DNA of 64,000 nt from Bdellovibrionota bacterium. GTDB taxonomy: Bacteria > Bdellovibrionota > Bdellovibrionia > Bdellovibrionales > JAMPXM01. A program made the translations under genes and the position numbers. Under the pieces are notes generated by a model. It saw nothing but the letters and a program-made list of their open reading frames with translations. It searched no databases and was not told the DNA's origin. Each line of letters opens with the position of its first letter. The first letter of the stretch is position 1. The stretch lies in contig CAUJGS010000033.1 of assembly GCA_963170185.1 (NCBI GenBank), positions 62,001 to 126,000 of the forward strand, read 5' to 3'. Positions 7,160 to 63,958 of this stretch are shown piece by piece.

Positions 7160-8740
7160 TTATTCCCATTCTATCGTTCCAGGAGGTTTCGACGTCACGT
7201 CGTAAACCACACGATTTACACCTTTGACCTGGTTCGTGATGCGGTTTGAAACCTCGCGCAAAAACGCGAACTCAAACGGATACCAATCGGCCGTCATGCC
7301 GTCTAGCGACGTCACAGCCCTTAGCGCCAATACGCGGTCGTATGTGCGCGCGTCCCCTTGTACGCCGACTGTTCTGACCGGCAAAAGCACACAAAATGCC
7401 TGCCAGATCTTGTCATAGAGTCCAGCTTCACGAAGTGCCGAAATAAAAATATGATCCGCTTCCTTGATGATCGAGAGCTTCTCTCTTGTCACATCTCCCA
7501 TACAGCGAATCGCCAATCCTGGACCAGGGAATGGGTGGCGTCCCAAGATATCCTGCGGGAGATCGAGCTCGCGCCCGATCTGACGAACTTCGTCTTTAAA
7601 GAGCTCGCGAAGCGGCTCAACAAGCCTCATGTTCATTTTCTCAGGCAAGCCACCTACATTGTGATGGGACTTGATCGTGACACTTGCTCCTCGTGGCGAA
7701 ACGCTTTCGATGACGTCGGGATACAGCGTCCCCTGAGCCAACCATTCGTAGTGTTCACCTTTGGTTTTAGCCGCTTCCATAAAGACGTCGATAAAAACTT
7801 TGCCGATCGCTTTACGTTTAGCTTCCGGCTCTTCTAAGCCAGCCAAGGCCGAAAGAAACTCTTCTTCCGCATCGACGCCCGTCACATTAAGACCGATGAG
7901 GCGATACTGTCTTAAGACATCTTCGTATTCATTTTTACGAAGCAGACCGTTGTTCACAAACACGCAGTGAACACGCGAAGGTTCTAAAGCTTTCGTAAGA
8001 AGCGCCGCCACGACCGAAGAATCCACGCCTCCAGAAAGTCCGCATAAAACCTTGTCAGTCGGTCCGACGCGCTCTCGAATCCCTTGAATCAGATGTTCGA
8101 CAATAGAATGCGAACTCCAAGTCGGAGTCGCCTCACACATCACCGACGCAAACTCCTTTAGGATATCGGTCCCATGGTCTGTGTGCGCGACTTCCGGATG
8201 AAACTGCACAGCCCAGACTCGCGGCCCACGCATGGCGGCGGCATGTTTTGAATCACTCATGCCGACGATCTTAAACCCTGGTGGCGGCACTCTCACGACA
8301 TCGCCGTGACTCATCCACACACGCTGCGAAAGTGGAATCCGGGGTGCAAAAGGTTCGCTCCAAGAAACATAGTTATGCCCGTATTCACGGCTCGAAGCCG
8401 CTTCGACTTTTCCACCAAGCTCTTGTGCGATCAACTGCATGCCGTAACAGATTCCCAACAGAGGCGCGATCTCATTAAGAGCCCGAACGTCGGCTTTGGG
8501 ACTTCCATCTTCGTGAACCGATGATGGCCCGCCCGACAAGATAATGCCCTTTGGCTTTCGGCGGCGAATCTCTTCTACCGGAGTATTAAACGGCAAGAGC
8601 TCGGAATAGTAATTGAGTTCCCGTAACCGACGAGCGATCAGCTGCGTGAGCTGACTTCCGAAATCGAGAACAACAAAACCGCCTTCGATGGTTTGATTCC
8701 AACCCGACTTTGATTGATCATGCTGTGATCCAGTTGCCAT
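7160..8740 (-). CDS. guaA: GMP synthase (glutamine-hydrolysing)
   Basis: 526 aa; GGPSSVHEDG, GICYGMQL amidotransferase, LSGGVDSSV PP-loop, GRHPFPGPGLAIR, C-terminal KPPGTIEWE. Confidence 0.98.
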   Translation of the reverse strand: MATGSQHDQSKSGWNQTIEGGFVVLDFGSQLTQLIARRLRELNYYSELLPFNTPVEEIRRRKPKGIILSGGPSSVHEDGSPKADVRALNEIAPLLGICYGMQLIAQELGGKVEAASSREYGHNYVSWSEPFAPRIPLSQRVWMSHGDVVRVPPPGFKIVGMSDSKHAAAMRGPRVWAVQFHPEVAHTDHGTDILKEFASVMCEATPTWSSHSIVEHLIQGIRERVGPTDKVLCGLSGGVDSSVVAALLTKALEPSRVHCVFVNNGLLRKNEYEDVLRQYRLIGLNVTGVDAEEEFLSALAGLEEPEAKRKAIGKVFIDVFMEAAKTKGEHYEWLAQGTLYPDVIESVSPRGASVTIKSHHNVGGLPEKMNMRLVEPLRELFKDEVRQIGRELDLPQDILGRHPFPGPGLAIRCMGDVTREKLSIIKEADHIFISALREAGLYDKIWQAFCVLLPVRTVGVQGDARTYDRVLALRAVTSLDGMTADWYPFEFAFLREVSNRITNQVKGVNRVVYDVTSKPPGTIEWE

Positions 8741-8752
8741 GTGCTTGAGCTC

Positions 8753-10219
8753 CTATTCCAGTCGGTAATTTGGGGCTTCTTTTGTGATGCTCACGTCATG
8801 CACGTGAGACTCACGAAGACCAGATGAAGAAATCTGAACGAATTTTGCCTTTGCCTGAAGATCCGCAATCGACTGCGACCCCATATAACCCATTCCACTT
8901 TTGAGGCCACCCACCAGCTGATGAAGAATCGCCGAGGCGCTGCCTTTGTAAGGGACTTTGCCTTCGATCCCTTCGGGCACGAGTTTTTCGAAGTCCATAA
9001 TATCGCCCTGGAAGTAGCGATCTTTCGAACCTTTTGCCATCGCACCAAGAGACCCCATGCCGCGATAAACCTTGTACGTGCGCCCTTGATAAAGCAGCGT
9101 TTCGCCCGGACTCTCATCGGCACCAGCAAGCAAGTTTCCGATCATGACACTTGAAGCACCAAGTGCTAGTGCTTTTGTCACGTCACCCGAATATTTGATT
9201 CCACCGTCGGCGATAATGGTTTTGCCTTTCTTCTTGGCGGCCGCTGAACATTCGATGACAGCCGAGATCTGAGGCATACCGACACCCGCCACGACACGAG
9301 TTGTGCAAATCGAGCCTGGCCCGATTCCCACCTTCACGACATCTGCGCCTCGATCCATTAACGCGTTTGTCGCGTCTGCGGTGACGACGTTTCCCGCCAC
9401 CACGACCGTGTCTTTAAAGCTCTTTGCAACCCATTCGACCATCTCCAAGACATTCTTCGAATGCCCGTGAGCCGTGTCGACACAGATCACGTCGCAGCCC
9501 GCAGCGACCAAGGCCTGCACGCGCTCGCGTGATGTCTGATCGATACCGACCGCCGCTCCGACCACAAGACGTCCGTGCGCATCTTTTGTCGCCAGCGGGT
9601 ACTCTTTCGCTTTTTCGATATCCTTGATTGTGATGAGACCCTTTAAGCGTCCCTCTTTATCGACGATCGGAAGTTTTTCGATACGATGGCGCTGAAGAAT
9701 CTCTTTTGCTTTCTCAAGCGTCGTTCCGACTTCCGCCGTGACGAGTTTATCTTTCGTCATCACATCTTTGATAAGCTGGCGAGTGTTCGTCTCGAATCTG
9801 AGATCGCGATTGGTGAGAATCCCAACAAGCTTACCTTCGACGGTGATCGGAATTCCCGAGATCGAATACTTACGCATGAGTTCAAGCGCGTCAGCGACCT
9901 GCTTGTCCGGGCCAATCGTGATCGGGTCACGAATCATGCCCGACTCGTACTTTTTCACTTTCTCGGCCTCCAAAGCTTGTTCTTCGACCGTCATGTTTTT
10001 ATGAACGATGCCAAGACCACCTTGCTGCGCCATCACCCGCGCCATCTTGTTTCCCGTTACCGTATCCATGGCCGCTGAAATCACTGGCGAATGAAGAGTT
10101 ATGTCACGCGCAAAGAAGGACTTGGTGGTGACCATGCTGGGCACAATTTCCGAGTACTGGGGAACAAGCAAAATATCATCGAAGGTAAGGGCAAATGTGA
10201 CATCTAGCTGTTTACTCAT
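8753..10219 (-). CDS. guaB: IMP dehydrogenase
   Basis: [27 protein letters not shown] domains; [17 protein letters not shown] active-site loop. Start at 10219 overlaps the upstream stop (ATGA). Confidence 0.97.
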
Positions 10220-10764
10220 TTCGGACGCTCCTGGTGTTTGGCGGGGTTCTGATACCAATCTTTGTACATGAGGTAGTTGTCAGCGGACTTGTCGAGAAAC
10301 GCGAGTTCCTCGGGCTTAAGTGGCCGCACGGCTTTGGCGGGGCGACCCAAGATCAACCATCCCGATTCAAACGTGGCGCCCTCGGTCACAAGACTTCCGG
10401 CACCGACGATCGAACGTGATGGAATCACAGCGCCATCCATGATGGTTGCACCCATACCGATGAGGCAGAGATCACCGATATTGCATCCATGTAGCGTCAC
10501 GTTGTGACCGACCGTCACACGCCGCCCGATCTTGGCAAACGCCTTATTGAACGTGCCGTGCACGACCGTTCCGTCTTGGATATTGCTCTCGTCGCCAACT
10601 TCAATCGGCCCAACGTCGCCACGTAAAACGCACGAGTACCAAACCGAACAGTTTTTTCCGAGTTTAACTTGGCCGATCAACGCGGCCGTGGGAGCGAGGA
10701 AAGTCCCCTCGCCAACTTCGGGCGTGTAGCCCAGAAGGGATTGGATGACAGCTTGAGTGTTCAT
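10216..10764 (-). CDS. Gamma-carbonic anhydrase family / hexapeptide repeat protein
   Basis: 182 aa; left-handed beta-helix hexapeptides, GDVGPIEVGDESNIQDGTVVHG, VGHNVTLHGC. Confidence 0.9.
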   Translation of the reverse strand: MNTQAVIQSLLGYTPEVGEGTFLAPTAALIGQVKLGKNCSVWYSCVLRGDVGPIEVGDESNIQDGTVVHGTFNKAFAKIGRRVTVGHNVTLHGCNIGDLCLIGMGATIMDGAVIPSRSIVGAGSLVTEGATFESGWLILGRPAKAVRPLKPEELAFLDKSADNYLMYKDWYQNPAKHQERPK

Positions 10765-10773
10765 CCTTCGGGA

Positions 10774-11463
10774 TTACATCACGTAGCCGGTCTTCTTGGA
10801 ACCTATTTCGAGTTCCGGGAACGCTTCTCCGGCTATCCCTGTCAAAAGGCCCTCTTGGAGTTTCTCGAGTTCCTGGTTGAGCACACGGCACTGTGCAATA
10901 AACTCTTTCGTACTGAAAAAATGCACTTTCATCGCAAGACTGAAGCTAATCGCTTCGTCCGCACGCACACGAAACGGACTCCCCGGAAGCTCGATCCCCG
11001 TCGCTGTCGCCAAATGGAGATGAACAAACTGGTGATGCCCGATGCGCTCAACAAAGTAGCAGCGCCCGACTGTGACCCCAAGCTGCGCCAGAATCTGCTT
11101 CGTCACAGCGTGAGGCGACCCTTGCCCGCCTTGCCCGAGCTCCTGGAGAGCCACCGAGGCATCGAGCGGTCCCATCCATACCGGAAGTGTTTCGCCCGAG
11201 GCTTCATGTTTCAATAAAAACACGGGTCTTGCGTCGCCCGGCAGGATCATCACGCCCGAAGGCACCATCGTGAGCCATTCGGGCCCATGCGAAGAGACCA
11301 CGTCAGCCACACCGACCGACGTCTCCTCCGCGTTTGAGGAAATTTTAACTTCAGGGGCATTTTCCGTTTTCGTCACGGCCGTTTGTGGCACCGCCCGCTT
11401 TACCGGCGGTTTCCGCGTCCGAGACTTCGATTTTTTTGCCGACTCGCGAGACTTCACTGTCAC
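10774..11463 (-). CDS. Bifunctional nuclease (DUF151/BFN) family protein
   Basis: MILPGDARPVFLLKHEASGETLPVWMGPLDASVAL...FRVRADEAISFSLAMKVHFFSTKEF; GTG start overlapping miaB stop (GTGA). Confidence 0.8.
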   Translation of the reverse strand: MTVKSRESAKKSKSRTRKPPVKRAVPQTAVTKTENAPEVKISSNAEETSVGVADVVSSHGPEWLTMVPSGVMILPGDARPVFLLKHEASGETLPVWMGPLDASVALQELGQGGQGSPHAVTKQILAQLGVTVGRCYFVERIGHHQFVHLHLATATGIELPGSPFRVRADEAISFSLAMKVHFFSTKEFIAQCRVLNQELEKLQEGLLTGIAGEAFPELEIGSKKTGYVM

Positions 11464-12824
11464 TGCAAGAACCTGCTGGTATCGCCGCGCTCGCCGGAAA
11501 CAAGTATTTCGCCACGGCAAACCGAAGGGAAAGCCTTTAGGACTTTCACCGGTACCGTTTGTCCGATCAAAGACTTATCGCCATAGGCAAATACGAGTTT
11601 ATTCTGCGTTGAACGCCCTTGGATCTGCCCTTCGACATCCGTCGTGTTTTCAAACAAGACGTCCAAAGTCTGCCCATCAAGAGGTTTTGCTAGTTCAAAA
11701 CTGATCTCTCTTTGACGATCTAGGAGCTTTTGCAGACGACGTTGTTTTTCGTCTTCTGAAAGCTGGTCTTCGTAGCGTGCCGCTTTGGTAAATGGACGCG
11801 GGCTATAGCGGAAGGCGTAGATATTCTCGTAGCGAACTTCTTCTAGAAGTGTGTACGTGTCCTCATACTGCGCCTCTGTTTCACCCGGGAAGCCGACGAT
11901 CAGATCAGTCGTCAAAGTCACCCCTGGGATGCCTTCGCGAATCATTCGGACTTTATCCAAGTACTCTTCGCGCGTGTAACCGCGGTTCATGCGCTTAAGC
12001 ACTTCGGAGTTTCCGCTTTGCGCCGGCAAATGAATGTAGTCGCAAATTTTTGAACGATACTTGGCCGAGATATCAACCAGCTCTTGGTTGAAATCTTTCG
12101 GGTGCGATGTCGTGTAGCGAATGCGTTGAATTTCGGTATCTTCAGCCAACGCTTTTAGCAATTGACCAAAGTCCGCGCCACAGGTGCTCTTGTAGCTGTT
12201 GACGTTTTGCCCGAGCAGCGTGACCTCTTTTACACCACGGTCCGTAAGCGTTTTGATATCTTTTAAGAGCTCTTTCATATCACGGCTGCGCTCGCGCCCA
12301 CGCGTGAACGGAACGACACAGAACGTGCAGAAGTTGTCACACCCCTTCATGATATTCACGAAGGTCGAAACACCTGGGTTACGAACCATCGTCTCAACGG
12401 AATACGGCCTATCGTTTTCAAATCGCGCCGAGACCTGCTTTTCGCCAGTTTGATAAGCGCGCATGACGATCTCAGGAAGCTGATCGATCGCATCGGTGCC
12501 AAAGACGAAGTCCAAAACCGGAATGTCTTTTAAAAGCTTCTGCTTTTCTTGTTGAGCCACGCAGCCGCCGACGCCGATCTTAAGATCGGGGTTTTTGGCC
12601 TTCATTTCTTTGTATTTGCCGGCTTCCGACCAGACCTTGTGAACCGGTTTTTCACGAACCGAGCAGGAATTGATGATAATCAATGACGCCTTGTCTGGAG
12701 ATTCGACAGGTACAAAATTCACCATCTCCAGAAGCGAAAGCATCCTCTCGGTGTCATTCTCATTCATTTGGCAGCCATAGGTGGATATATAAACGCCCCG
12801 GCCGCGACCCAAATCTTCGTTCAT
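11460..12824 (-). CDS. miaB: tRNA-2-methylthio-N6-dimethylallyladenosine synthase
   Basis: 454 aa; ISTYGCQMNENDTERM, radical SAM CDNFCTFCVVPFTRGRERSR, C-terminal TRAM-like region. Confidence 0.97.
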   Translation of the reverse strand: MNEDLGRGRGVYISTYGCQMNENDTERMLSLLEMVNFVPVESPDKASLIIINSCSVREKPVHKVWSEAGKYKEMKAKNPDLKIGVGGCVAQQEKQKLLKDIPVLDFVFGTDAIDQLPEIVMRAYQTGEKQVSARFENDRPYSVETMVRNPGVSTFVNIMKGCDNFCTFCVVPFTRGRERSRDMKELLKDIKTLTDRGVKEVTLLGQNVNSYKSTCGADFGQLLKALAEDTEIQRIRYTTSHPKDFNQELVDISAKYRSKICDYIHLPAQSGNSEVLKRMNRGYTREEYLDKVRMIREGIPGVTLTTDLIVGFPGETEAQYEDTYTLLEEVRYENIYAFRYSPRPFTKAARYEDQLSEDEKQRRLQKLLDRQREISFELAKPLDGQTLDVLFENTTDVEGQIQGRSTQNKLVFAYGDKSLIGQTVPVKVLKAFPSVCRGEILVSGERGDTSRFLQ

Positions 12825-12910
12825 TTTGAGGCTTTACCCTTTCGCTTTGAACTGCTTCGCGTTATAGTCCCGCCGTCCGAAACAAGTCAAACCAGCCAGA
12901 AGGAAACGGC

Positions 12911-13534
12911 ATGACACCTCGCAACCCGTCGCAAAAGAAATGGACCGCTCTCCCATCGGAATTCCGCGAGAAAGCCGCTCAGGTCTTTGCGCAGAACTTC
13001 ATCCGTGAGAGCAAACAAGGTTCTTTTCTCATCGATGGCAGGATTTATCCTGGAGAGGTCGTCATGCGAGCCGGTTATGTTGAAAACGGCCGCCTCAAAC
13101 AAACGAATTTCGAAGTCTCACTCGACACTTCTGCTGGGGCCTCAGCTCCGAACTCCTCCGTCATGGATAAGCTCTTCTTGGGAATCGATGTTTTGGGGAG
13201 CGTTTTTGAAACGCATTTCGAGCATCTTCAAGAGGAAGAAGCTGACGAGATCGAATACCCAATGGCCTGGGAAGAGTACGAGTTTGATGACGCCAAAGTC
13301 TTCCTGCGCTTCTCGACCGTGAATACGGCTCTGGAAGAGGCTGCCGATCGTCTTCTTGGCGAAAGCTCTTCACCACTTTTCCAAGACGACTCCGAGGTCG
13401 AAAACCCAGACGCACTGGCGCTGGCGACGATCGACACTGATCTTGCGCAAGACGTGAGCCGCGCGATCCGTGAGGGCCGTTATAAGCCACAAGGCCACGA
13501 GGCCATCGAGCCAACCACCGAAGACCTGCACTAA
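12911..13534 (+). CDS. Conserved hypothetical protein, 207 aa
   Basis: Long ORF with consistent codon usage, divergent from miaB. Confidence 0.7.
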   Translation: MTPRNPSQKKWTALPSEFREKAAQVFAQNFIRESKQGSFLIDGRIYPGEVVMRAGYVENGRLKQTNFEVSLDTSAGASAPNSSVMDKLFLGIDVLGSVFETHFEHLQEEEADEIEYPMAWEEYEFDDAKVFLRFSTVNTALEEAADRLLGESSSPLFQDDSEVENPDALALATIDTDLAQDVSRAIREGRYKPQGHEAIEPTTEDLH

Positions 13535-13537
13535 AAG

Positions 13538-13590
13538 AATCTTTCCGTGCAGACGCACGGAAAGCAGCACCACCCAGAGGGTGGTGCGAC
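13538..13590. repeat. REP-like extragenic palindromic element, copy A (inverted relative to copies B/C)
   Basis: Reverse complement gtcgcaccaccctctgggtggtgctgctttccgtgcgtctgcacggaaagatt aligns with gtcgctacgccctccgggctgcgctgctttccgtgcaggagcacggaaagatt at 20049-20100. Confidence 0.75.
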
Positions 13591-13680
13591 GCAATCCGAC
13601 CGACGCAAAAAGTTTCAAAGCCATTTGATTCAGATGACTTGGCAAGATGCCTACCGTTATAGCATCGCCAGTTTGTTCAA

Positions 13681-14130
13681 ATGGAGGGACTTTCGGTGAC
13701 CAAGTCGCAAATACCGAGCTTAATACCACGAATGGTGCTCAGCCTATTGGCATTCCTTGCTTTCGGAGGCCTCTCTTTGAAAGCTCATGCTCGCGATCTC
13801 GAGCTCACCTGCGAAACTGAACCGCGCTTTGCCGCGCATCAGATTGCGCAAACGGCCCGCGTTCAATTTGATGACGCCAAGGCCCGCACAGGAGCGCCGA
13901 CGACGGTAAAAATCGACTGGATTCAACCGGATCGAACCAGCCGCTTTGGAGGCCTTGCCGCCGAACGCAAGGTTCGCTGGAGCGGGCTTCTCATTCGATC
14001 GATCGAATTCTCTATTAGCCCGAAGGTGAGCTTCGAGCTGCTCTTTAGCCCAACGGATGACATTTACGTCGTGCGCCGAAAAACAAATGGGCAACCCGTC
14101 ACCGAGCTGCCCTGTCGTATCGAACTATAA
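13681..14130 (+). CDS. Exported hypothetical protein
   Basis: Signal-like hydrophobic segment MVLSLLAFLAFGGLSLKAHA; start may be GTG 13696 after the GGAGGGA RBS. Confidence 0.65.
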   Translation: MEGLSVTKSQIPSLIPRMVLSLLAFLAFGGLSLKAHARDLELTCETEPRFAAHQIAQTARVQFDDAKARTGAPTTVKIDWIQPDRTSRFGGLAAERKVRWSGLLIRSIEFSISPKVSFELLFSPTDDIYVVRRKTNGQPVTELPCRIEL

Positions 14131-14218
14131 CCACGAACGATCTATAGCCACGAACCGTACGATTTATTTCGGCGCGCAGCTGCGCGCTCGAAAGCTTCCG
14201 AAGCGCTTGCGCGATATA

Positions 14219-15061
14219 TTAGAACCGGTCGTCTTCCTCGGAGCGAGCACCGCCGCCGCCCGAATCAGAGACGCGCTGGATCTCGAAAAGGTCGGATTGC
14301 GACTCTTCGTCGTCGAATTCCGCTTCAACCGCCGACTCGTCGATCTCAAGCTCTTGAATCGCCGCCAGAAAGTCTTTTTCGCTACGCAAATCCTTCTTCA
14401 GGATTTCCAAGAACTTGTCTGGGTAACGTGCCGTGAGCTCCTCGATATAACGCTCAAGCTTTCCTTCTTGCAGGATGTGACGACGTGTTTGGATGTTCTT
14501 CCACAAAAGAATGTAGTGATAACGGCAGTACGCATCGACTTCCGCCAGACGATCGCAATCTTTTACGCGGCAGTAACGCCGGCCTTCCGCATCGGTTAAA
14601 ACGACGTCTTCAGCCTGTTCAGGCTCTTCCACGACAATCGGTTTCGTGTCGACTTTTGCCGTTTTGGGTTCGACAACCTTCGCCGCTTTTTTGTCGAGCT
14701 TCGTGTCGGCCTTTTCCGGCGCCTTTGCGACCTTGCCAGGCTTCACCGGCTTTGCCGGAGCAGACGCCTTTACCGCGACAGCTTTTGCCGGAGTTGTTTT
14801 TACGGAAGAGGCTTTTACGGGAGCCGCTTTCACAACAGGTTTAGCTGGCGCTTTGGCCACTTTGCCTTTTACGGGAGCCGCTTTTTTAGGTGCCGCCGCC
14901 TTCACCGGCTTAACCGCTTTCACGGCTTTAGCCGCCTTAGGCGCCGCCTTTGCTGGCGCTTTTGAGGCTTTTGCTGGAGCGGCTTTTACCGCGGCCTTTT
15001 TTGAGGCTGCGGCTGTCTTTGCTGGTTTGGCAGGCTTGGACGTAGGCTTCGACTTTTTCAT
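14219..15061 (-). CDS. Lys/Ala/Pro-rich (histone H1-like) repeat protein with C-terminal C-C-C-H zinc-finger-like domain
   Basis: About 150 aa of KAxPAKxxxKAAPVKA low-complexity sequence, then RYCRVKDCDRLAEVDAYCRYHYILLWKNIQTRRHIL. Confidence 0.8.
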   Translation of the reverse strand: MKKSKPTSKPAKPAKTAAASKKAAVKAAPAKASKAPAKAAPKAAKAVKAVKPVKAAAPKKAAPVKGKVAKAPAKPVVKAAPVKASSVKTTPAKAVAVKASAPAKPVKPGKVAKAPEKADTKLDKKAAKVVEPKTAKVDTKPIVVEEPEQAEDVVLTDAEGRRYCRVKDCDRLAEVDAYCRYHYILLWKNIQTRRHILQEGKLERYIEELTARYPDKFLEILKKDLRSEKDFLAAIQELEIDESAVEAEFDDEESQSDLFEIQRVSDSGGGGARSEEDDRF

Positions 15062-15104
15062 AGGGGCCCAAGCTCTCTCATTTTCCCAGCCCTTGTCAAA
15101 GCTC

Positions 15105-16172
15105 TTATCGAATACGAATCACGCCGCGCTTCGAGCGCACGATGATTTGCCCTTTTGGTGTGCCATCAAGGCGTGCGACGACCGATTTCGGCCCCGTGAC
15201 CCGAGGCACTCGAATCGATTCGGGCGCCTGGATGATCCCGTCCTCCGACGAGAGCCTCAAAAGCGCCCCTGTTCCACCCGGGGGCTTTACGGTAACCGAG
15301 CCATCATCTGTTTCGACCGAAACATCGGTTTCTCCAGCCAGCTGGAGGTTAATGGCACCATCTTCCGTCGAGCCGCGCACCGCACCGTTGAGTGCCGTGG
15401 CTGCAATACCACCTCGGCCATTTTCAAACTGAAAATCGCCGTCAATTTTATTGAGATTCAACGAACCAGCTTTTCCGCGATATCTGAGTTTACCCGTCAA
15501 CTGCTGCACCGAGGACTCCGCCGCAAATGCAAAAAGTCGTACGTCACCCTGAACCTGGGACAAGCTGGATTTCCCACCGTGAATTTCAAGCTCCGCATCC
15601 CCTTTGTGTTTGTTGAGCTGTAGCTCACCGCGGGTCAGCAAAACACGAACACCACCGTCACCATCGGAAAGCAGAACCTTGCCATCGCTCATCGTCACCG
15701 CGAGAGAGTTTTTCCAGCCATTGGCAATCACGTTGCCTGAGTGCATGTGAATTTCCGCCGGTGTCGACGGACTTTCTATGTCGAAACTGAGTTCAGGGGC
15801 GCCTGGTTTAGCCAGGGCGATATAGCCTTGGCGCGAGTCAGGCCCTTTGATCTCGACAAAAACCGTCGAGCCCTCGCGGCGAGTTTGAAAAGAGATGGAT
15901 TCAAAAAGCGCGGTCGTTTCACCCAGTTTGTCATTGGTGACTTTGCGTGCGCGAACCACGGGGCTTCCCGTTTTGCCACCGGCTTCTCCCAAAGGGATCA
16001 AGCGAACTTGACCGCGCACTCCGGAAACAACCAGGCGATCACCTTTTGTGATCTCTAGAGGGTAGTCTTTAAACTTCACCTCGCGAGCCGCTTCAGCCGA
16101 AAAACCGCTCAAGATGCAGGCAGCAAAAACTAGAGCTGCTGCTCGAAAATCCATTCGCTTCTCAATTGTCAT
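15105..16172 (-). CDS. Exported beta-repeat protein (DUF4097-like adhesin fold suspected)
   Basis: Signal peptide then repeated short beta motifs (MSDGKVLLSDGDGGVRVLLTRGELQLNKHKGDAELEIHGG...TDDGSVTVKPPGG). Confidence 0.65.
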   Translation of the reverse strand: MTIEKRMDFRAAALVFAACILSGFSAEAAREVKFKDYPLEITKGDRLVVSGVRGQVRLIPLGEAGGKTGSPVVRARKVTNDKLGETTALFESISFQTRREGSTVFVEIKGPDSRQGYIALAKPGAPELSFDIESPSTPAEIHMHSGNVIANGWKNSLAVTMSDGKVLLSDGDGGVRVLLTRGELQLNKHKGDAELEIHGGKSSLSQVQGDVRLFAFAAESSVQQLTGKLRYRGKAGSLNLNKIDGDFQFENGRGGIAATALNGAVRGSTEDGAINLQLAGETDVSVETDDGSVTVKPPGGTGALLRLSSEDGIIQAPESIRVPRVTGPKSVVARLDGTPKGQIIVRSKRGVIRIR

Positions 16173-16321
16173 CCTGATCGTCCCCCTGTTTCAGAACTAA
16201 GCCTCTCAATTTTTCTCGAGACTCGCAATGTTGGCGACAAGTGTCATCAGGTGACGGACCTCACGACTTAGTCGAAAACTTTCCGGCTTTCGTGTTTTCT
16301 CATCTGAAAGAGGAGAGTTTT

Positions 16322-17503
16322 ATGTCTACATCATCTGTATTCATCACCGCGGCAGTTCGCACCCCTGTTGGCGCCTTCCAAGGAGCGTTCTCGGATGTTC
16401 CCGCTCCACGACTCGGGGCAGCGGCTATTCGCGAAGCTCTCGCGAAAGCGCAAATCAAAGGTGATGTCGTCGACGAAGTCATCATGGGCGAAGTTCTCAC
16501 CGCAGGCGTTGGCCAAGCTCCTGCCCGACAAGCAGCTCTTTATGCGGAACTTCCAAACTCGGTTCCTTGCCTCACGATCAACAAAGTTTGCGGCTCTGGT
16601 TTGAAAGCTGTGATGTTGGCGGCCGATGGCATTCGGCTTGGCAACACGCAAGTCGCCATCGCCGGCGGACAAGAGAACATGACGCTTGCTCCACACTTGC
16701 TTCCAAAGGCCCGCACGGGTTTTCGCATGGGAAACACGAACCTCATCGATTCGATGATCAACGACGGTCTTTGGGATCCGTACAATAACTTCCACATGGG
16801 CGTGGCCGCGGAACTTTGCGTGAAAGAAAACAGCTTCACACGCGAGCAACAAGACGAGTTCGCAATTAACTCGTATAAAAAGGCGCAAAAAGCTCAGGTT
16901 GAGGGTTACTTTAAAAACGAAATCGTCGGCGTCGAAGTCGCTTCGAAAAAAGGTCCTATTAAATTTGATCAAGACGAAGAGCCTACGAAGACTGATTTTG
17001 CGAAAGTGCCCGGCTTAAAACCAGCCTTCGACAAAGCTGGAACAATCACGGCTGCAAACGCATCGAAGATCAACGACGGTGCTGCAGCTTTGGTTTTGAT
17101 GGGCGATGCCGCACTTAAAAAACATGGCTCAAAACCGCTTGCGAAAGTGATCGGCTACGCGCATCACGCTCACGATCCAAAATGGTTCACGACAGCTCCT
17201 GCCGGTGCGATGACAAAAGCTGTGCAAGCAGCTGGTCTATCGATGAATCAAATCGACCTTTTTGAAATTAACGAGGCATTCGCGGCCGTCACCATGGTTG
17301 CGATGAAAGAACTGAAGCTCGAAGAAGCACGCGTGAATGTTCACGGCGGTGCTGTGGCGATCGGTCACCCGATCGGTGCCTCCGGAGCTCGTATTTTGAC
17401 GACGCTCGTGCACGCCCTTCACCTACATCAAAAGCGCTATGGCCTAGCGACTCTTTGTATCGGTGGCGGCGAAGCCGTAGCCCTTGTTGTGGAGCGTGTA
17501 TAG
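16322..17503 (+). CDS. Acetyl-CoA C-acetyltransferase (thiolase)
   Basis: [72 protein letters not shown]. Confidence 0.95.
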
Positions 17504-57549: not shown

Positions 57550-57626
<77 letters not shown>

Positions 57627-57692: not shown

Positions 57693-57719
57693 CTCGATGG
57701 TCCACCGATGGTCCACGAG
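57693..57719. repeat. Direct repeat DR-L
   Basis: ctcgatggtccaccgatggtccacgag, identical to 63932-63958; contains tandem gatggtccac(c). Confidence 0.95.
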
Positions 57720-57748: not shown

Positions 57749-58870
57749 TCAGTCGCGCTTGGACACAATCGGAGTAACTGCAAAGATCTCGGCCACGCGC
57801 TCGACGGCTCCAGAGATCAAATGCACATACGTCATTGTGGTTGCGATGTCGGCATGGCCGCAGATCTCTTTCACCGTTTTTAGATCGATTCCGCTGGCAA
57901 TCATCATCGTCGTCGCCGAGTGCCTGAGATCGTGAAACCGAATCGATCGTCCGCCCCAAGCCTTCACGTCGACTAAGAACTGCCGCTTTACGAAGTTTTC
58001 GTGGCAGACAGGTTTTCGAAGTTCGTTCATGAAAACCGTCTCGTCCGGATTGATCGACTTAGTTTGGATCAAGCATTCGAGCTCTTCGCGAAGTTCATCG
58101 TTTAGCGGAGCAAGCCGCGACTTCTTCGATTTCGTCGGCGCCATCGCAAGTGTGACGCGGTTGAACTGCCGTCTCACTTGAATCGACCTTCCGTCCCGAG
58201 AAAGATCCGATGGCCTAAGCCCCCAGATCTCGCCAGCCCGCATCGCGGTGTTCAGTGCCAAAAGGTAAACCACATAGACCCAGCGATCTTCCGAGTCCTT
58301 GGGATAAATCCGGTTAGCGAAGGTAAGAAAATCCGCAGCTTCATCTTGATCCCAAAAATCCATCTCGGTCGTCGACTTCTTTAGCTTCCTAAACCCGTTG
58401 GCCGGATTAAACGGAATCCGCCGCTGCTTCACCGAAAAGTTCAAGATCGTCGTGAACACTTCGGTTTTTCGATTCACAGAAGCGTTCTCAAGACCTCTGG
58501 CTTTTTCTTCCTGCTGATACTTCGCAAGAAATTCTGGTGTGAACTTGTCCATCGTGAGATCACCAAAACGCGGCAAGACTTCGTTAAGAACTCCCTTCAC
58601 TCGCACCAAGTGCGATGCCGAAAAGCGAAGCTCGCCGTCTTTTAGCCAGTTCACGGCTTCGTCACGAAAAAATCGATTCTCAAACGAACAGCCCTTAAAT
58701 GGACTCTTTCGTTCTTCTTCAAGCTTTGATTCGAATTCCAGCAAAAACGCCTCGGCATCTGTTCGTCGATCAAACCTTCGGTTGATGCGACGACTGCCGC
58801 GGCCATTTTCCCAAACTCGAACCTGCCATTTGGTTTCGCCATTGGCAATTTTCAGTTTTGATATCCCCAT
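57749..58870 (-). CDS. Tyrosine recombinase / phage-type integrase
   Basis: LNTAMRAGEIWGLRPSDL; RFHDLRHSATTMMIASGIDLKTVKEICGHADIATTMTYVHL (R..HxxR..Y). Confidence 0.96.
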   Translation of the reverse strand: MGISKLKIANGETKWQVRVWENGRGSRRINRRFDRRTDAEAFLLEFESKLEEERKSPFKGCSFENRFFRDEAVNWLKDGELRFSASHLVRVKGVLNEVLPRFGDLTMDKFTPEFLAKYQQEEKARGLENASVNRKTEVFTTILNFSVKQRRIPFNPANGFRKLKKSTTEMDFWDQDEAADFLTFANRIYPKDSEDRWVYVVYLLALNTAMRAGEIWGLRPSDLSRDGRSIQVRRQFNRVTLAMAPTKSKKSRLAPLNDELREELECLIQTKSINPDETVFMNELRKPVCHENFVKRQFLVDVKAWGGRSIRFHDLRHSATTMMIASGIDLKTVKEICGHADIATTMTYVHLISGAVERVAEIFAVTPIVSKRD

Positions 58871-58890: not shown

Positions 58891-59238
58891 TTAGCGTCTA
58901 GTTCGACGATTCGCCTGCTGAGTCATCCAGAGATTCAGTGCTTCGGTACTTAGAAATAAATGACCATTAAACTTATTAAAGAGCCCAGGGGGCGTGTTTC
59001 GCCGGTGAGGTCTGTGGTGCCAGTCGTAAACTGTGCGCACAGAAATCCCGAGCTCACGCGCAACATCCTGCGCCTTTATCCACCTCTTTCGATTGTCAAA
59101 GACCGATGTGGGCACTTGCTCGCTTGAATTTGCCCGAACTGCATCGTCTTTGAAAGTTTGAGTGAGAATCTCATCAAACGCTTTTTCATCAACGACCGAA
59201 TGACTCTTCAACAACACCAAGTGCTTTTCGTTCTTCAT
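58891..59238 (-). CDS. AlpA/excisionase-like HTH protein
   Basis: KRWIKAQDVARELGISVRTVYDWHHRPHRRNTPPGLFNKFNGHLFLSTEALNLWM. Confidence 0.75.
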   Translation of the reverse strand: MKNEKHLVLLKSHSVVDEKAFDEILTQTFKDDAVRANSSEQVPTSVFDNRKRWIKAQDVARELGISVRTVYDWHHRPHRRNTPPGLFNKFNGHLFLSTEALNLWMTQQANRRTRR

Positions 59239-59507
59239 GACTACCACCTCACGACATTTCGTTCGAGCGCAAACTTCTCGAACCGATTGCCTGAGATTTT
59301 TTAAAGAGAAAAGCACAAAATGCGTGCGAGATTTTCGCCAGCATTGTTCGGGAATTGAACCCAGCTACCAAGCGCTACCTAGCGGAACTCCGCGGACCTT
59401 AGCGATACCCTCTAAGGTCCCTCAAGCTGCCTATTTCCGTTCGAAAAGCCGCTGCAAAATTTTTAAGTTTATAGCAGCCGCGTCGAAAAGATGTAGCCCG
59501 CTCGCAC

Positions 59508-60518: not shown

Positions 60519-60887
60519 CTAGGCCACTTTGAGATCAAATTCGATTTGTTCGTATTCAACTAAAGGCGTCTTCACCGTGCGCCCCGCGACTGTCGAAGTC
60601 TTGATTTTAATCGCGCCGATAGATTCGAAAAACGAAACGAGCTTGTTAAGATTCGACACATCCATGTCGAGATGTTTTGCGAGCTCGTAGACCGACTTTG
60701 GTTTGTGAACAAGTATCGCCGACAGAACGCTGAGGTTCTTTACAAATCGGTCGAAGTCTTTCTTTGTGTCGAACGCGAGTTCGAAGTGATCGCCTTTGAG
60801 GCGTCCCTTGCGCGCGTCCTTCAATGCCTTTTTGAAACTAGAGAGCGATTCGCCTGAGGACTTAATGGAAACAATCAGCTTTTTCAT
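60519..60887 (-). CDS. TumA-like antitoxin (HVO_A0114-type winged HTH)
   Basis: HKPKSVYELAKHLDMDVSNLNKLVSFFESIGAIKIK; overlaps toxin stop (ATGA). Confidence 0.7.
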   Translation of the reverse strand: MKKLIVSIKSSGESLSSFKKALKDARKGRLKGDHFELAFDTKKDFDRFVKNLSVLSAILVHKPKSVYELAKHLDMDVSNLNKLVSFFESIGAIKIKTSTVAGRTVKTPLVEYEQIEFDLKVA

Positions 60888-61174
60888 AGTTTCACTCCCA
60901 ATTTTTTTAGAACCAACTTTTCGAAATCCTCAATTAACTTCTCGTCATCAACGTAGGTATACGAAAACTCTTGATCGTTGACATGAACATGCGGCCCCTT
61001 TGGGTGATGATTGTCGAGCAGAACGAACTCACCGCTTTTTAAATCTTTGCAGATCAATCCGTATTTAATGCCGTCTGGATACTTGGAAGACTTCCCAATT
61101 TCATGAATAGAAAGCTCGACCACATACCGGCCATGAAGGAAATTTTTAAGAAAAAACCTAACCTTTGCCTTCAT
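60884..61174 (-). CDS. TumE-like toxin (DUF6516 family)
   Basis: 96 aa; FVLLDNHHPKGPHVHVNDQEFSYTYVDDEKLIEDFEKLV. Confidence 0.7.
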   Translation of the reverse strand: MKAKVRFFLKNFLHGRYVVELSIHEIGKSSKYPDGIKYGLICKDLKSGEFVLLDNHHPKGPHVHVNDQEFSYTYVDDEKLIEDFEKLVLKKLGVKL

Positions 61175-61354
61175 GTTGGTATCCTAAAACACATATAGGT
61201 AAAATACAACCCATACCACACGTTATTTCGAATATTGCCTATTTCAGCACTCATTTCGTATACACCGCAAACCCATTTCCGACCCGCCAAGAGTTTGCTT
61301 TCCAATTCAACGCTTCGCCATCACCAATCTCTTTTCTTACTTCTTCTTCCCCTC

Positions 61355-61419
61355 CGCATCTCTGCTCCTGACCACCTGCCCTTATTCGTGGAGGGCGGGT
61401 GGTCAGGAGCAGAGATGCG
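61355..61419. repeat. 27-bp inverted repeat, 11-nt loop
   Basis: cgcatctctgctcctgaccacctgccc ... gggcgggtggtcaggagcagagatgcg, single T/G wobble position. Confidence 0.97.
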
Positions 61420-61469
61420 CTTCCCGGATTTTAGAAACCAGCAATTTCAACGATTTGAACTGAACACCG

Positions 61470-61521
61470 TGGACCCAAAGCATCCCACCTCTGAGATGAG
61501 CAAAGGGATGCTTTGGGTCCA
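61470..61521. repeat. 17-bp perfect inverted repeat, 18-nt loop
   Basis: tggacccaaagcatccc ... gggatgctttgggtcca. Confidence 0.97.
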
Positions 61522-61573
61522 GCAACTTTTCACGCTTTAAAACCAGTACAACCTTCGGCTGGACGCCGCCTGA

Positions 61574-62389
61574 TTAGAATTCAAACCAATCAATGTTGAG
61601 GCAGCGAACCACCTCGGACTTTGAGGGCCCAAGGTCCTTGTAGAGCTCATCTAGAAACGTCGGAATCCGGCGTCGCACTTCTTGGGCTAGTTCGCGCGAC
61701 AGCGACATTGGCCCCGTGTAGAAGAGGTCACTCTCATTGCGCGCTCGCATTGAATCAACTGCCTTAAGTCGCCAGTTACGATGATGTGACAAAACAAATG
61801 GGGAACTTGCTGCGACATGCGTCTTTTGAGGCCCCACTGACACAATGCCAGATTGACTTTGACAGAGGCCAGTTTCGACCAAAAAGTTTACGATCTCGCT
61901 CATGGTTGATCGAGAAATACCAAAACGTAGCGCAAGGCTCTCTGCAGTTTGTTTTTCTTCAAGTGCCGATGCATTCCTAACTGCTGAGTAAATCCAATCA
62001 GAGTAGAAAGTTGCTTTTGCTGCGTCTGTCATGGCTTCGTCGACCTTGAGTCGCTTAGTAAGAGTTTGGGCGCGACTTTGTGATTCAATGACTTGATTTC
62101 GCAAACGAGTTTTCAAGCGGGTCGACCCGGCGCGAGCGAAGTCGACCAGAAGTAAGAAGTGTCTCGCCTCGTCTTCAGCAAAACCGATGTAATCACAGAG
62201 ATCGTTCGCAAGTTCTAGACTTAGGTTTCGATCCCCTCGCATCACTTGGCTGATCATAGTCGAAGTAACGCCGATCGCCTTCGCCATGCGACTCCACTGA
62301 CCTCGCTGGGTTACGGACTTCTCTTTCACCCAACCCTTCAAAAAAAGCCGATAATCTAGAAACTCAAAAACAGACTTTAAGTTATTCAT
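61574..62389 (-). CDS. TIGR02147-family (DUF4423-like) regulator
   Basis: FEFLDYRLFLKGWVKEKSVTQRGQWSRMAKAIGVTSTMISQVMRGDRNLSLELANDLCDYIGFAEDEARHFLLLV; second HTH, AESLALRFGISRSTMSEIVNFL. Confidence 0.82.
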   Translation of the reverse strand: MNNLKSVFEFLDYRLFLKGWVKEKSVTQRGQWSRMAKAIGVTSTMISQVMRGDRNLSLELANDLCDYIGFAEDEARHFLLLVDFARAGSTRLKTRLRNQVIESQSRAQTLTKRLKVDEAMTDAAKATFYSDWIYSAVRNASALEEKQTAESLALRFGISRSTMSEIVNFLVETGLCQSQSGIVSVGPQKTHVAASSPFVLSHHRNWRLKAVDSMRARNESDLFYTGPMSLSRELAQEVRRRIPTFLDELYKDLGPSKSEVVRCLNIDWFEF

Positions 62390-62554: not shown

Positions 62555-62653
62555 ATTATGTCTGGCTTGCAACCAAAGCGCTCTAGCAAGGCGGGTGGCA
62601 AGAAAAGATCACCTCATTACTTAACCCTAATGGGCACAAATGTTGCCCCTTGA
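62516..62653 (+). CDS. Small basic ORF, 45 aa
   Basis: MKKFRDVPREAVRIMSGLQPKRSSKAGGKKRSPHYLTLMGTNVAP*; below the ORF-track length cut-off; ends 31 nt before the lipoprotein ATG. Confidence 0.4.
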   Translation: MKKFRDVPREAVRIMSGLQPKRSSKAGGKKRSPHYLTLMGTNVAP

Positions 62654-62684
62654 AGTGGCCGATGGGCCAAGAAATGAGTTTGAA

Positions 62685-63902
62685 ATGAAGCACCTAGCGA
62701 TAGCGAGCTTAACGATTGCGATGACCGCAACCACCGCTTGTTCCAATTGGGAGCGATCAGGGGGCACTGCTGGCGCCGGTCAAGGCGTGATTTCAGCCGG
62801 ACCACCGCTTGCACAAGGAACGGTTGACGGCGGCGGCGGGAATTCGGTTTTACTGTCCTCTTCAGTTCTTGAAGTAAACAGTGTAATGGACCGGATTAAG
62901 GAGCTAAGTAAATCCCCAGCATATTTCAATGTATATTCGATTGGCGACGACTGGAAGTTTGCTCGAGAAAAGAAGTATCAAGTTCTCCTCAGGGACGTTT
63001 CAGAAAAAGCATCCCAACTACTGCTCAGTCTTGTGCTGAACGACAAAGTCGTCTTACAAACGGACGCCTGTACCGACCCCCACTCTGGTGTGCCTCGCGA
63101 CGGATCCGCACATGGAGTTGGAAAAAATGGAACAATTTGTTTGAGTACAAGTCGTCTTCAGCGAATTCCACCTGGCGAACTAAAAAATCAGATATTGGCA
63201 CTGCTTCTTCACGAGGTTGTCCATCTCTTAGGTTATGGCGAACATTTCGCCCAGTATGCGCAAGACTATTACTTGCGAGATATTGCAGGTTCGCTTGACG
63301 TCATTGGTCTAATTAACTGTTCTCAATGGCACCAATCCCCGTACTCGGCGCGTTGCATGTTGGGAAATAGGCCATCACTGAATCCACAGTATGCAGTTAG
63401 TCCAGATCCACAACTTGCCAAACTTGAATCAATTAAAACTTTTTTGGATCAAAAAGGAATCAGCTGCAACTCTCCAGATGGTAGGCCACTTACCTGGGAA
63501 GAGTTAATAAAACGCATTGCAGATCCAGATTCTCGAACGAAATTCGGATTTACTGACCTACCTCTTTCTGAATATCGCACGCGCGAATACATGGAACTTA
63601 TCAACAGGCTCATGAGGGATTCACTGGCCTATGGGCACCATTTTGAGACTCCAAAACAATCTGTTTTGGAAGAATCATTCTTCCCGAAATTCAAGATGGG
63701 ATGGGCTGATCGGGCGATCAAGATCGATCAAATACTCGCTGAAACAGCAGCGAAGTGGGCTGCCTTTTACCCAAACAGCACCTATGAGGAGAGACGATTT
63801 AGCGCGTGTCAGATTGATAGCTTTCGTGAGCGGTTAACCTTTTTCAGAAAACTCGAACTCGAAAGGGACTCAAGCATCCAAACTGTGCTCGAGTTCGAGT
63901 GA
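62685..63902 (+). CDS. Exported lipoprotein, putative zinc metallopeptidase
   Basis: Lipobox TTAC; LLHEVVHLLGYGEHFAQYA (HExxHxxGxxEH). Confidence 0.7.
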   Translation: MKHLAIASLTIAMTATTACSNWERSGGTAGAGQGVISAGPPLAQGTVDGGGGNSVLLSSSVLEVNSVMDRIKELSKSPAYFNVYSIGDDWKFAREKKYQVLLRDVSEKASQLLLSLVLNDKVVLQTDACTDPHSGVPRDGSAHGVGKNGTICLSTSRLQRIPPGELKNQILALLLHEVVHLLGYGEHFAQYAQDYYLRDIAGSLDVIGLINCSQWHQSPYSARCMLGNRPSLNPQYAVSPDPQLAKLESIKTFLDQKGISCNSPDGRPLTWEELIKRIADPDSRTKFGFTDLPLSEYRTREYMELINRLMRDSLAYGHHFETPKQSVLEESFFPKFKMGWADRAIKIDQILAETAAKWAAFYPNSTYEERRFSACQIDSFRERLTFFRKLELERDSSIQTVLEFE

Positions 63903-63931: not shown

Positions 63932-63958
63932 CTCGATGGTCCACCGATGGTCCACGAG
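63932..63958. repeat. Direct repeat DR-R
   Basis: ctcgatggtccaccgatggtccacgag, identical to 57693-57719. Confidence 0.95.

What the first reader, a model, noticed from the sequence alone, without database searches (positions are those of the whole stretch)
61355..61521. Two adjacent very strong hairpins in an otherwise empty 400-nt intergenic gap
A 27-bp stem (one wobble position, 11-nt loop) and a 17-bp perfect stem (18-nt loop) lie 50 nt apart between the TA operon and the TIGR02147-like gene. Neither is followed by a T tract on either strand, so they do not look like simple intrinsic terminators. The first is preceded by a pyrimidine tract (tctcttttcttacttcttcttcccctcc). Possibilities: structured ncRNA, replication/transfer origin, folded recombination substrate, or remnant of a MITE-like insertion.
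Basis: seen in the sequence. Interest (0 to 1): 0.65.

Follow-up and report, generated by a model that had tools for sequence, protein, structure and literature searches.

The report
Orphan conjugation transfer origin (oriT)
The two hairpins are the DNA 'start transfer here' site (origin of transfer) of a small tRNA-inserted genomic island that has no transfer enzyme of its own, so in a Bdellovibrio-like bacterium it probably moves between cells by borrowing the enzymes of other elements, some of them in the same genome.

Summary
In detail: these are the two strongest inverted repeats in the window. They form a MOBC-type (CloDF13-like) origin of transfer, inferred from sequence only.

Hairpin 1 carries CTGACCACCTG...GGGTG|GTCAG. 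Across Bdellovibrionales the same hairpin lies within 0.6 kb of genes for a Replic_Relax/MobC relaxase and a VirD4/TrwB-like coupling protein, the CloDF13 mobB-mobC arrangement. Its arms covary (21 of 27 pairs change on both sides; 0 of 500 shuffles match). A model trained only on relaxase-adjacent hairpins finds the window copy at 59.8 bits. Plasmid CloDF13 has the same core.

Hairpin 2 sits where autonomous elements carry RRGATG-N6-RRGATG repeats, about 86 nt past the core, so it is probably the modified protein-binding part of the oriT.

The window copy is an orphan. It lies in a 6.5-kb integrase island in an initiator-type tRNA-Met gene with 46-bp direct repeats and no relaxase. The same genome holds a mobC-mobB element with a near-matching oriT and a VirB-type T4SS. 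Two same-genus islands share the oriT with swapped cargo.

Most likely it is an 'iOriT' hitchhiker, nicked and mobilised in trans: a new member of a known kind. Many further relaxase-less copies appear in the order.

The parts
61355..61419 (+). Hairpin 1: MOBC-type oriT nick hairpin; core CTGACCACCTG...GGGTGGTCAG at 61368-61406; predicted nick GGGTG|GTCAG between 61401 and 61402 on the + strand
   Evidence: Inverted repeat; out-of-sample covariance-model match 59.8 bits, E 2.8e-12 for the genome; arm covariation in 25 homologs; same core in CloDF13. Nick position is by analogy with MOBC1 nic sites.
61470..61521 (+). Hairpin 2: region downstream of the core on the transferred strand, holding GAGATG (61493-61498) and GGGATG (61505-61510) spaced by 6 nt; probable relaxase/accessory-protein binding region, here folded into a 17-bp stem
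   Evidence: Inverted repeat; repeats at the same distance from the core in mobC-linked oriTs of 5 other loci and ungapped zero-offset alignment with G000:C49. Binding role is inferred.
57550..57626 (+). tRNA-Met (CAT, initiator-type sequence), insertion site of the island; attL 46-bp repeat 57581-57626
   Evidence: ARAGORN and Rfam; exact 46-bp second copy at window-equivalent 64074-64119, just right of the window in L016
57693..57719 (+). 27-bp repeat inside the left island end (probable integrase arm site)
   Evidence: exact match to 63932-63958
63932..63958 (+). 27-bp repeat inside the right island end (probable integrase arm site)
   Evidence: exact match to 57693-57719
57749..58870 (-). 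tyrosine integrase of the island
   Evidence: PF00589 4e-29; homologs on the two sister islands of G004
58891..59316 (-). small HTH protein next to the integrase (excisionase-like candidate), kept on both sister islands
   Evidence: HTH_23 9e-7; cluster 7
60519..61174 (-). cargo: two-gene HVO_A0114-like HTH + small protein (TA-like) pair left of the oriT
   Evidence: PF25212 7.4e-9
61574..62389 (-). cargo: TIGR02147/DUF4423 regulator right of the oriT, shared with G004:C16
   Evidence: TIGR02147 2.1e-23; PF14394; cluster 23
62640..63902 (+). cargo: lipoprotein-like metalloprotein (HEVVH motif) between the oriT and attR
   Evidence: ORF and motif; shared with G004:C16; no family match

Best explanation
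Window 61355-61521 is an origin of transfer (oriT) of the MOBC relaxase family. Hairpin 1 presents the nick site GGGTG|GTCAG in its 3' arm. The region of hairpin 2, 65-110 nt further along the transferred strand, carries 12-nt-spaced repeats and probably binds the relaxase or an accessory/coupling protein. The oriT is an orphan: it sits in a 6.5-kb integrase-bearing island inserted in the 3' end of a tRNA-Met gene, and the island has no relaxase. Proposed mechanism: the integrase excises the island as a circle; a MobC/MobB pair from another element (for example G000:C49 in the same genome) nicks the + strand at 61401|61402; the strand passes through a VirB-type T4SS (for example G000:C51); it recircularises in the recipient and reintegrates at tRNA-Met. 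Shown by sequence: the hairpin family, its link to mobC, the arm covariation, the island ends, the presence of candidate helpers. Inferred: nicking, the exact nick position, which helper acts, and actual transfer.
For: Hairpin beside a two-gene operon in 13 loci: Replic_Relax/MobC and TraG-D/TrwB coupling protein. PF13814 is the MobC relaxase superfamily and its IMEs carry VirD4 coupling proteins (PMC5357655). Starting from MobC alone, 23 of 30 loci have a strong inverted repeat upstream, nearly all with the same core. Covariation 0.445 vs 0.140 in shuffles, 21 of 27 pairs with double changes. Model built only from mobC-adjacent hairpins finds the window at 59.8 bits; 42 of 105 non-training sites lie within 0.6 kb of MobC, about 0.15 expected. 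Same core IR in CloDF13; MOBC1 nic of ICEKp1 GGTTG|GTCGCG (PMC7755788). Downstream repeats at a fixed distance, as for pAD1 TraX (PMC12857230). Bdellovibrio plasmids carry it. Island ends; sister islands; T4SS genes and mobC-mobB in the own genome.
Against: No experiment. The nick is placed by analogy. Pfam scores of the nearest MobC relatives are below the curated cut-off, and NCBIfam scores too for the member shown in full. The genome is in 136 contigs (draft, 2.45% contamination), so island, helper and T4SS may not share one cell. Whether the G000:C49 relaxase accepts the window arms beyond the shared core is unknown. No clean empty site was established.
Confidence: 0.88

Rival explanations
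1. A dead oriT relic: the island descends from a mobC-bearing element that lost its relaxase, and the hairpins are no longer used.
For: No relaxase in the island. Hairpin 2 departs from the autonomous form by gaining a stem.
Against: Three copies in two genomes keep near-perfect stems, core and repeat spacing (94-97% DNA identity) although their cargo differs, and integrase and att sites are intact in the window copy. Orphan sites are frequent in the order.
Confidence: 0.08
2. Transcription terminators or a structured RNA of the TIGR02147 or TA transcripts.
For: The hairpins lie downstream of the TIGR02147 gene on the - strand and fold very stably as RNA.
Against: No T tract and no terminator hit at the stems; no Rfam family; homologs lie upstream of mobC, not at gene ends; in G004:C10 the pair has other neighbours on both sides. 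A side effect on termination is not excluded.
Confidence: 0.03
3. A dispersed palindromic repeat (REP/MITE-like) or a folded recombination site.
For: The element recurs with unrelated left flanks and several times in some genomes.
Against: Low copy number (three sites in the own genome), fixed position next to mobC in many genomes, covarying arms, and the core shared with CloDF13. The island's own recombination sites are at the tRNA, 3-4 kb and 2.5 kb away.
Confidence: 0.01

Closest known systems
oriT of plasmid CloDF13 (MOBC1; mobB coupling protein + mobC relaxase)
   Same: Same core inverted repeat CTGACCACC...GGGTGGTC, nick-type motif, MobC with P-D...E.E..K, and a coupling protein in the mobilization module.
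   Different: Loop about 50 nt in CloDF13 against about 10 here; arms differ; the window copy has no mob genes and has a second hairpin over the downstream repeats.
oriT of pAD1 (TraX, MOBC)
   Same: MOBC relaxase binding direct repeats 70-120 bp downstream of nic (PMC12857230), like the repeats at +86/+98 here.
   Different: Two repeats were seen here against five; sequences were not compared; host is Gram-positive.
iOriT integrative elements (relaxase-less islands mobilised in trans; PMC11389934)
   Same: Integrase plus att sites plus oriT, no relaxase; depends on helper MOB and T4SS.
   Different: The oriT is of MOBC type and the possible helper relaxase sits on another probable mobilizable element in the same genome; lineage is Bdellovibrionota.
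Bdellovibrio sp. HAGR004 plasmids pBdHAGR1/4/5
   Same: Same oriT family; pBdHAGR4/5 with mobC-mobB beside it.
   Different: Autonomous plasmids; pBdHAGR4/5 cores carry a compensatory C/G swap.

Membership tests
MOBC-type oriT | nick-type motif GGKTG|GTC in the arm of an inverted repeat | tested here: met
   GGGTGGTCAG at 61397-61406; compare ICEKp1 GGTTG|GTCGCG and CloDF13 GGGTGGTCGGG
MOBC-type oriT | family members lie next to a MOBC relaxase gene | tested here: met
   mobC within 0.6 kb for 62 of 125 listed sites; 23 of 30 mobC loci have the hairpin upstream. The window copy itself has none.
MOBC-type oriT | direct repeats 70-120 nt downstream of nic | tested here: met
   RRGATG-N6-RRGATG at +86/+98 in the window and in 5 mobC-linked loci; not seen in all oriTs of the set
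MOBC-type oriT | strand-specific nicking and mobilisation | not testable with these tools
   needs an assay
MOBC relaxase (proteins linked to the oriT family) | PF13814 / NCBIfam MobC match and PD-(D/E)XK-type residues | tested here: met
   PF13814 over cut-off for two proteins, weak for two; NF041423 matches 8 of 8; invariant P-D...E-x-E...K; best PDB fold match EcoO109I, weak
iOriT integrative element | integrase and direct-repeat att ends | tested here: met
   PF00589, 46-bp exact repeats at tRNA-Met
iOriT integrative element | no relaxase inside the element | tested here: met
   ORFs of the island with Pfam/NCBIfam; PF13814 and the MobC profile hit only C129 and C49 in this genome
iOriT integrative element | transfer in trans by a helper | not testable with these tools
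   candidate helpers exist in the genome
intrinsic terminator | stem followed by a T tract | tested here: not met
   and sequence
known structured RNA | Rfam family match at gathering score | tested here: not met
REP/MITE repeat | high copy number, position-independent | tested here: not met
   three sites in the own genome, two of them beside mobC

The most novel reading that the evidence does not exclude
Bdellovibrionota host a large layered network of relaxase-less integrative hitchhikers mobilised by MOBC elements, matched by a hairpin 'address' whose covarying arms set which relaxase recognises it; orphan sites such as this one add a second hairpin over the binding repeats, perhaps to recruit a resident element's relaxase better.
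Probability: 0.3. Interest if true: 0.75.

Novelty: new member of a known kind. Interest (0 to 1): 0.57.

Why it matters
[quoted passage not shown] This gives a covariance-supported oriT model for a whole order of predatory-type bacteria, explains small islands that seemed to have no transfer route, suggests that pBdHAGR plasmids typed 'non-mobilizable' may be mobilizable, and names a testable helper/hitchhiker pair in one genome.

Tried and rejected
Rfam and the terminator scan gave nothing at the stems. The exact-core scan of viral contigs found no match, and blastn of 61340-61525 found none in plasmids or phages: the site is recognised by core and structure, not by overall DNA similarity. 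The genome contigs pattern scan also returned isolated hits in other phyla, many probably chance. Two actinobacterial hits (L035, L036) have a nested palindrome and weak model scores (24-25 bits); one of those genomes has a clear Replic_Relax gene elsewhere, but no link to the hairpin was established. tblastn of one MobC against plasmids found only a weak hit; the coupling protein was the better probe. The PDB sequence search with MobC found nothing meaningful. CloDF13's MobC was reached only as a weak, frame-split match holding the PD...E.E..K motif, so no protein tree with CloDF13 was made. A clean empty site was not established: other genomes of the genus carry different sequence after this tRNA. 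The pyrimidine tract left of hairpin 1 is not conserved and was dropped.

Full report
Observation. The two stems exist at the stated coordinates: 61355-61382/61392-61419 (28-nt arms, one T/G position) and 61470-61486/61505-61521 (17 bp, perfect). They are the strongest near-perfect inverted repeats of the window, and the gap folds far below shuffles on both strands. There is no Rfam match and neither stem is scored as a terminator.

Related copies. In the same genus, G004 has two copies of the pair (C16, 97%; C10, 94%), and the core of hairpin 1 recurs in other genera. C16 continues on the right into the same TIGR02147 gene; C10 shares only the hairpin pair. The pattern CTGACCACCTG N8-38 GGGTGGTCAG occurs in 12 of 141 genomes of the order and 14 of 369 of the phylum, with no match to the reversed control pattern. 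The non-Watson-Crick position inside the stem and a CGT in the loop are conserved in most copies.

What lies beside it. ORFs around 20 loci clustered into two families next to the hairpin in 13 loci: about 260 aa and about 440 aa, adjacent and on one strand. Pfam assigns Replic_Relax (PF13814) and TraG-D_C/TrwB. NCBIfam MobC matches all 8 aligned small proteins (below the curated cut-off for the one member shown in full). They share invariant P-D...E-x-E...K residues. PF13814 is the MobC relaxase superfamily, and IMEs with it carry a VirD4 coupling protein (PMC5357655). MOBC relaxases are PD-(D/E)XK-type enzymes (PMC12857230). CloDF13 MobB is the coupling protein of the rare MOBC1 mobilizable plasmids (PMC7431656). 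An AlphaFold model of a MobC (pLDDT 85.9) has as its best PDB match the restriction enzyme EcoO109I, weakly (E 3e-3, TM 0.36), and winged-helix regulators match part of it.

Converse and blind tests. Starting from MobC alone (78 of 141 genomes), 23 of the 30 best loci have a strong inverted repeat upstream, nearly all with the same core but different arms. Over 25 hairpins 90.3% of cells pair, 21 of 27 pairs show changes on both sides, and the covariation score is 0.445 against 0.140 in shuffles (0 of 500) and at most 0.11 when slid. A covariance model built without the window or its two sister copies, from hairpins beside mobC, finds the window hairpin at 59.8 bits and sites in 62 of 141 genomes. 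Of 105 listed sites not used in training, 42 are within 0.6 kb of a MobC gene; about 0.15 were expected over all listed sites.

Prototype comparison. The CloDF13 sequence itself contains GCTGACCACCCGCAAAATC...GATTTTTGTGGGTGGTCGGGC. I recall the published CloDF13 nic as GGGTG/GTCGGG (Nunez and de la Cruz 2001); that paper was not held, so this is from memory. A held paper lists the MOBC1 nic of ICEKp1 as GGTTG|GTCGCG (PMC7755788). Bdellovibrio plasmids pBdHAGR4 and pBdHAGR5 have mobC-mobB homologs with an upstream hairpin whose core carries a compensatory swap (CTGAGCACC/GGTGCTCAG), and pBdHAGR1 carries the canonical core.

Hairpin 2. At +86 and +98 nt after the core the window has GAGATG and GGGATG. 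The same RRGATG-N6-RRGATG occurs at +86 to +88 in the mobC-linked oriTs of G000:C49, G012, G034, G069 and G073; 8 of 26 flanks have it (three are the window family) against 0.014 expected in mononucleotide shuffles. The window flank aligns with that of G000:C49 without gaps and at zero offset (33 of 46). pAD1's MOBC relaxase binds direct repeats 70-120 bp downstream of nic (PMC12857230). I infer that hairpin 2 is a protein-binding region that has gained a 17-bp stem in the orphan lineage; which protein binds is not known.

The carrier. The last 46 bp of tRNA-Met (57581-57626) recur exactly at window-equivalent 64074-64119, and 27-bp repeats lie inside both ends. The 6.5-kb island holds a tyrosine integrase, an HTH gene, a gene without family match, a TA-like pair, the oriT, TIGR02147, and a metalloprotein-like gene, but no relaxase. 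G004:C10 has a relative at the same tRNA and G004:C16 has the same attR segment. C16 combines the left cargo of C10 with the right cargo of the window, with the oriT between. The own genome also has G000:C49 (mobC, T4CP cut by the contig end, oriT), G000:C129 (mobC with a weaker hairpin), and on C51 a VirB4 homolog, a VirB10 homolog and a coupling protein in one cluster.

Prevalence of orphans. Of 20 sampled sites without a listed MobC, 6 turned out to have a divergent MobC plus T4CP beside them; 14 had neither in the fetched stretch, 4 of these with an integrase of this family within 2 kb and several with a tRNA 1.6-2.8 kb away. Some lie near contig ends. G044 has the oriT but no MobC match in its genome.

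Verdict. This is an orphan MOBC oriT on an integrative island, a new member of a known kind (iOriT, PMC11389934). Excision, nicking in trans, transfer and reintegration are inferred.

Noticed in passing
L075, L076, L077 (Bdellovibrio sp. HAGR004 plasmids pBdHAGR5, 4, 1): Typed 'non-mobilizable' by MOB-suite, but pBdHAGR4/5 carry MobC and coupling-protein homologs with an oriT hairpin, and pBdHAGR1 carries the hairpin near a coupling-protein gene that looks interrupted by an insertion sequence.
   Followed up: partly
L067, L068 (G004:C10, G004:C16): Sister islands are mosaics: same integrase and oriT, left and right cargo exchanged on either side of the oriT (TA systems, a TIGR02147 gene, secreted proteins).
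   Followed up: partly
L111 (G000:C51, locus 7992-17022): VirB4/TraC-like ATPase, VirB10-like protein and coupling protein, with other T4SS-like genes between them, in the same draft genome; a possible mating pore. No relaxase was looked for beside it.
   Followed up: partly
L110 (G000:C129, 8498-11385): A second MobC-like gene followed by a large serine recombinase, with a weaker oriT-like hairpin at 10500-10538, on the downstream side of mobC.
   Followed up: no
L035 and L036 (Solirubrobacterales / Paraconexibacter): A nested palindrome with the same CTGACCACCTG...GGGTGGTCAG core in Actinobacteria; it may be a distant oriT of the same type.
   Followed up: partly
L123 (CloDF13, NC_002119): The mobilization genes seem broken by frame shifts in this record (MobC matches split over two frames), and it is typed non-mobilizable.
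   Followed up: no
L016, right of the island (window-equivalent 64120-64700): Just right of attR, repeated GGCTGCCAAG-type sequences and a further small gene suggest another mobile segment beside this island.
   Followed up: no
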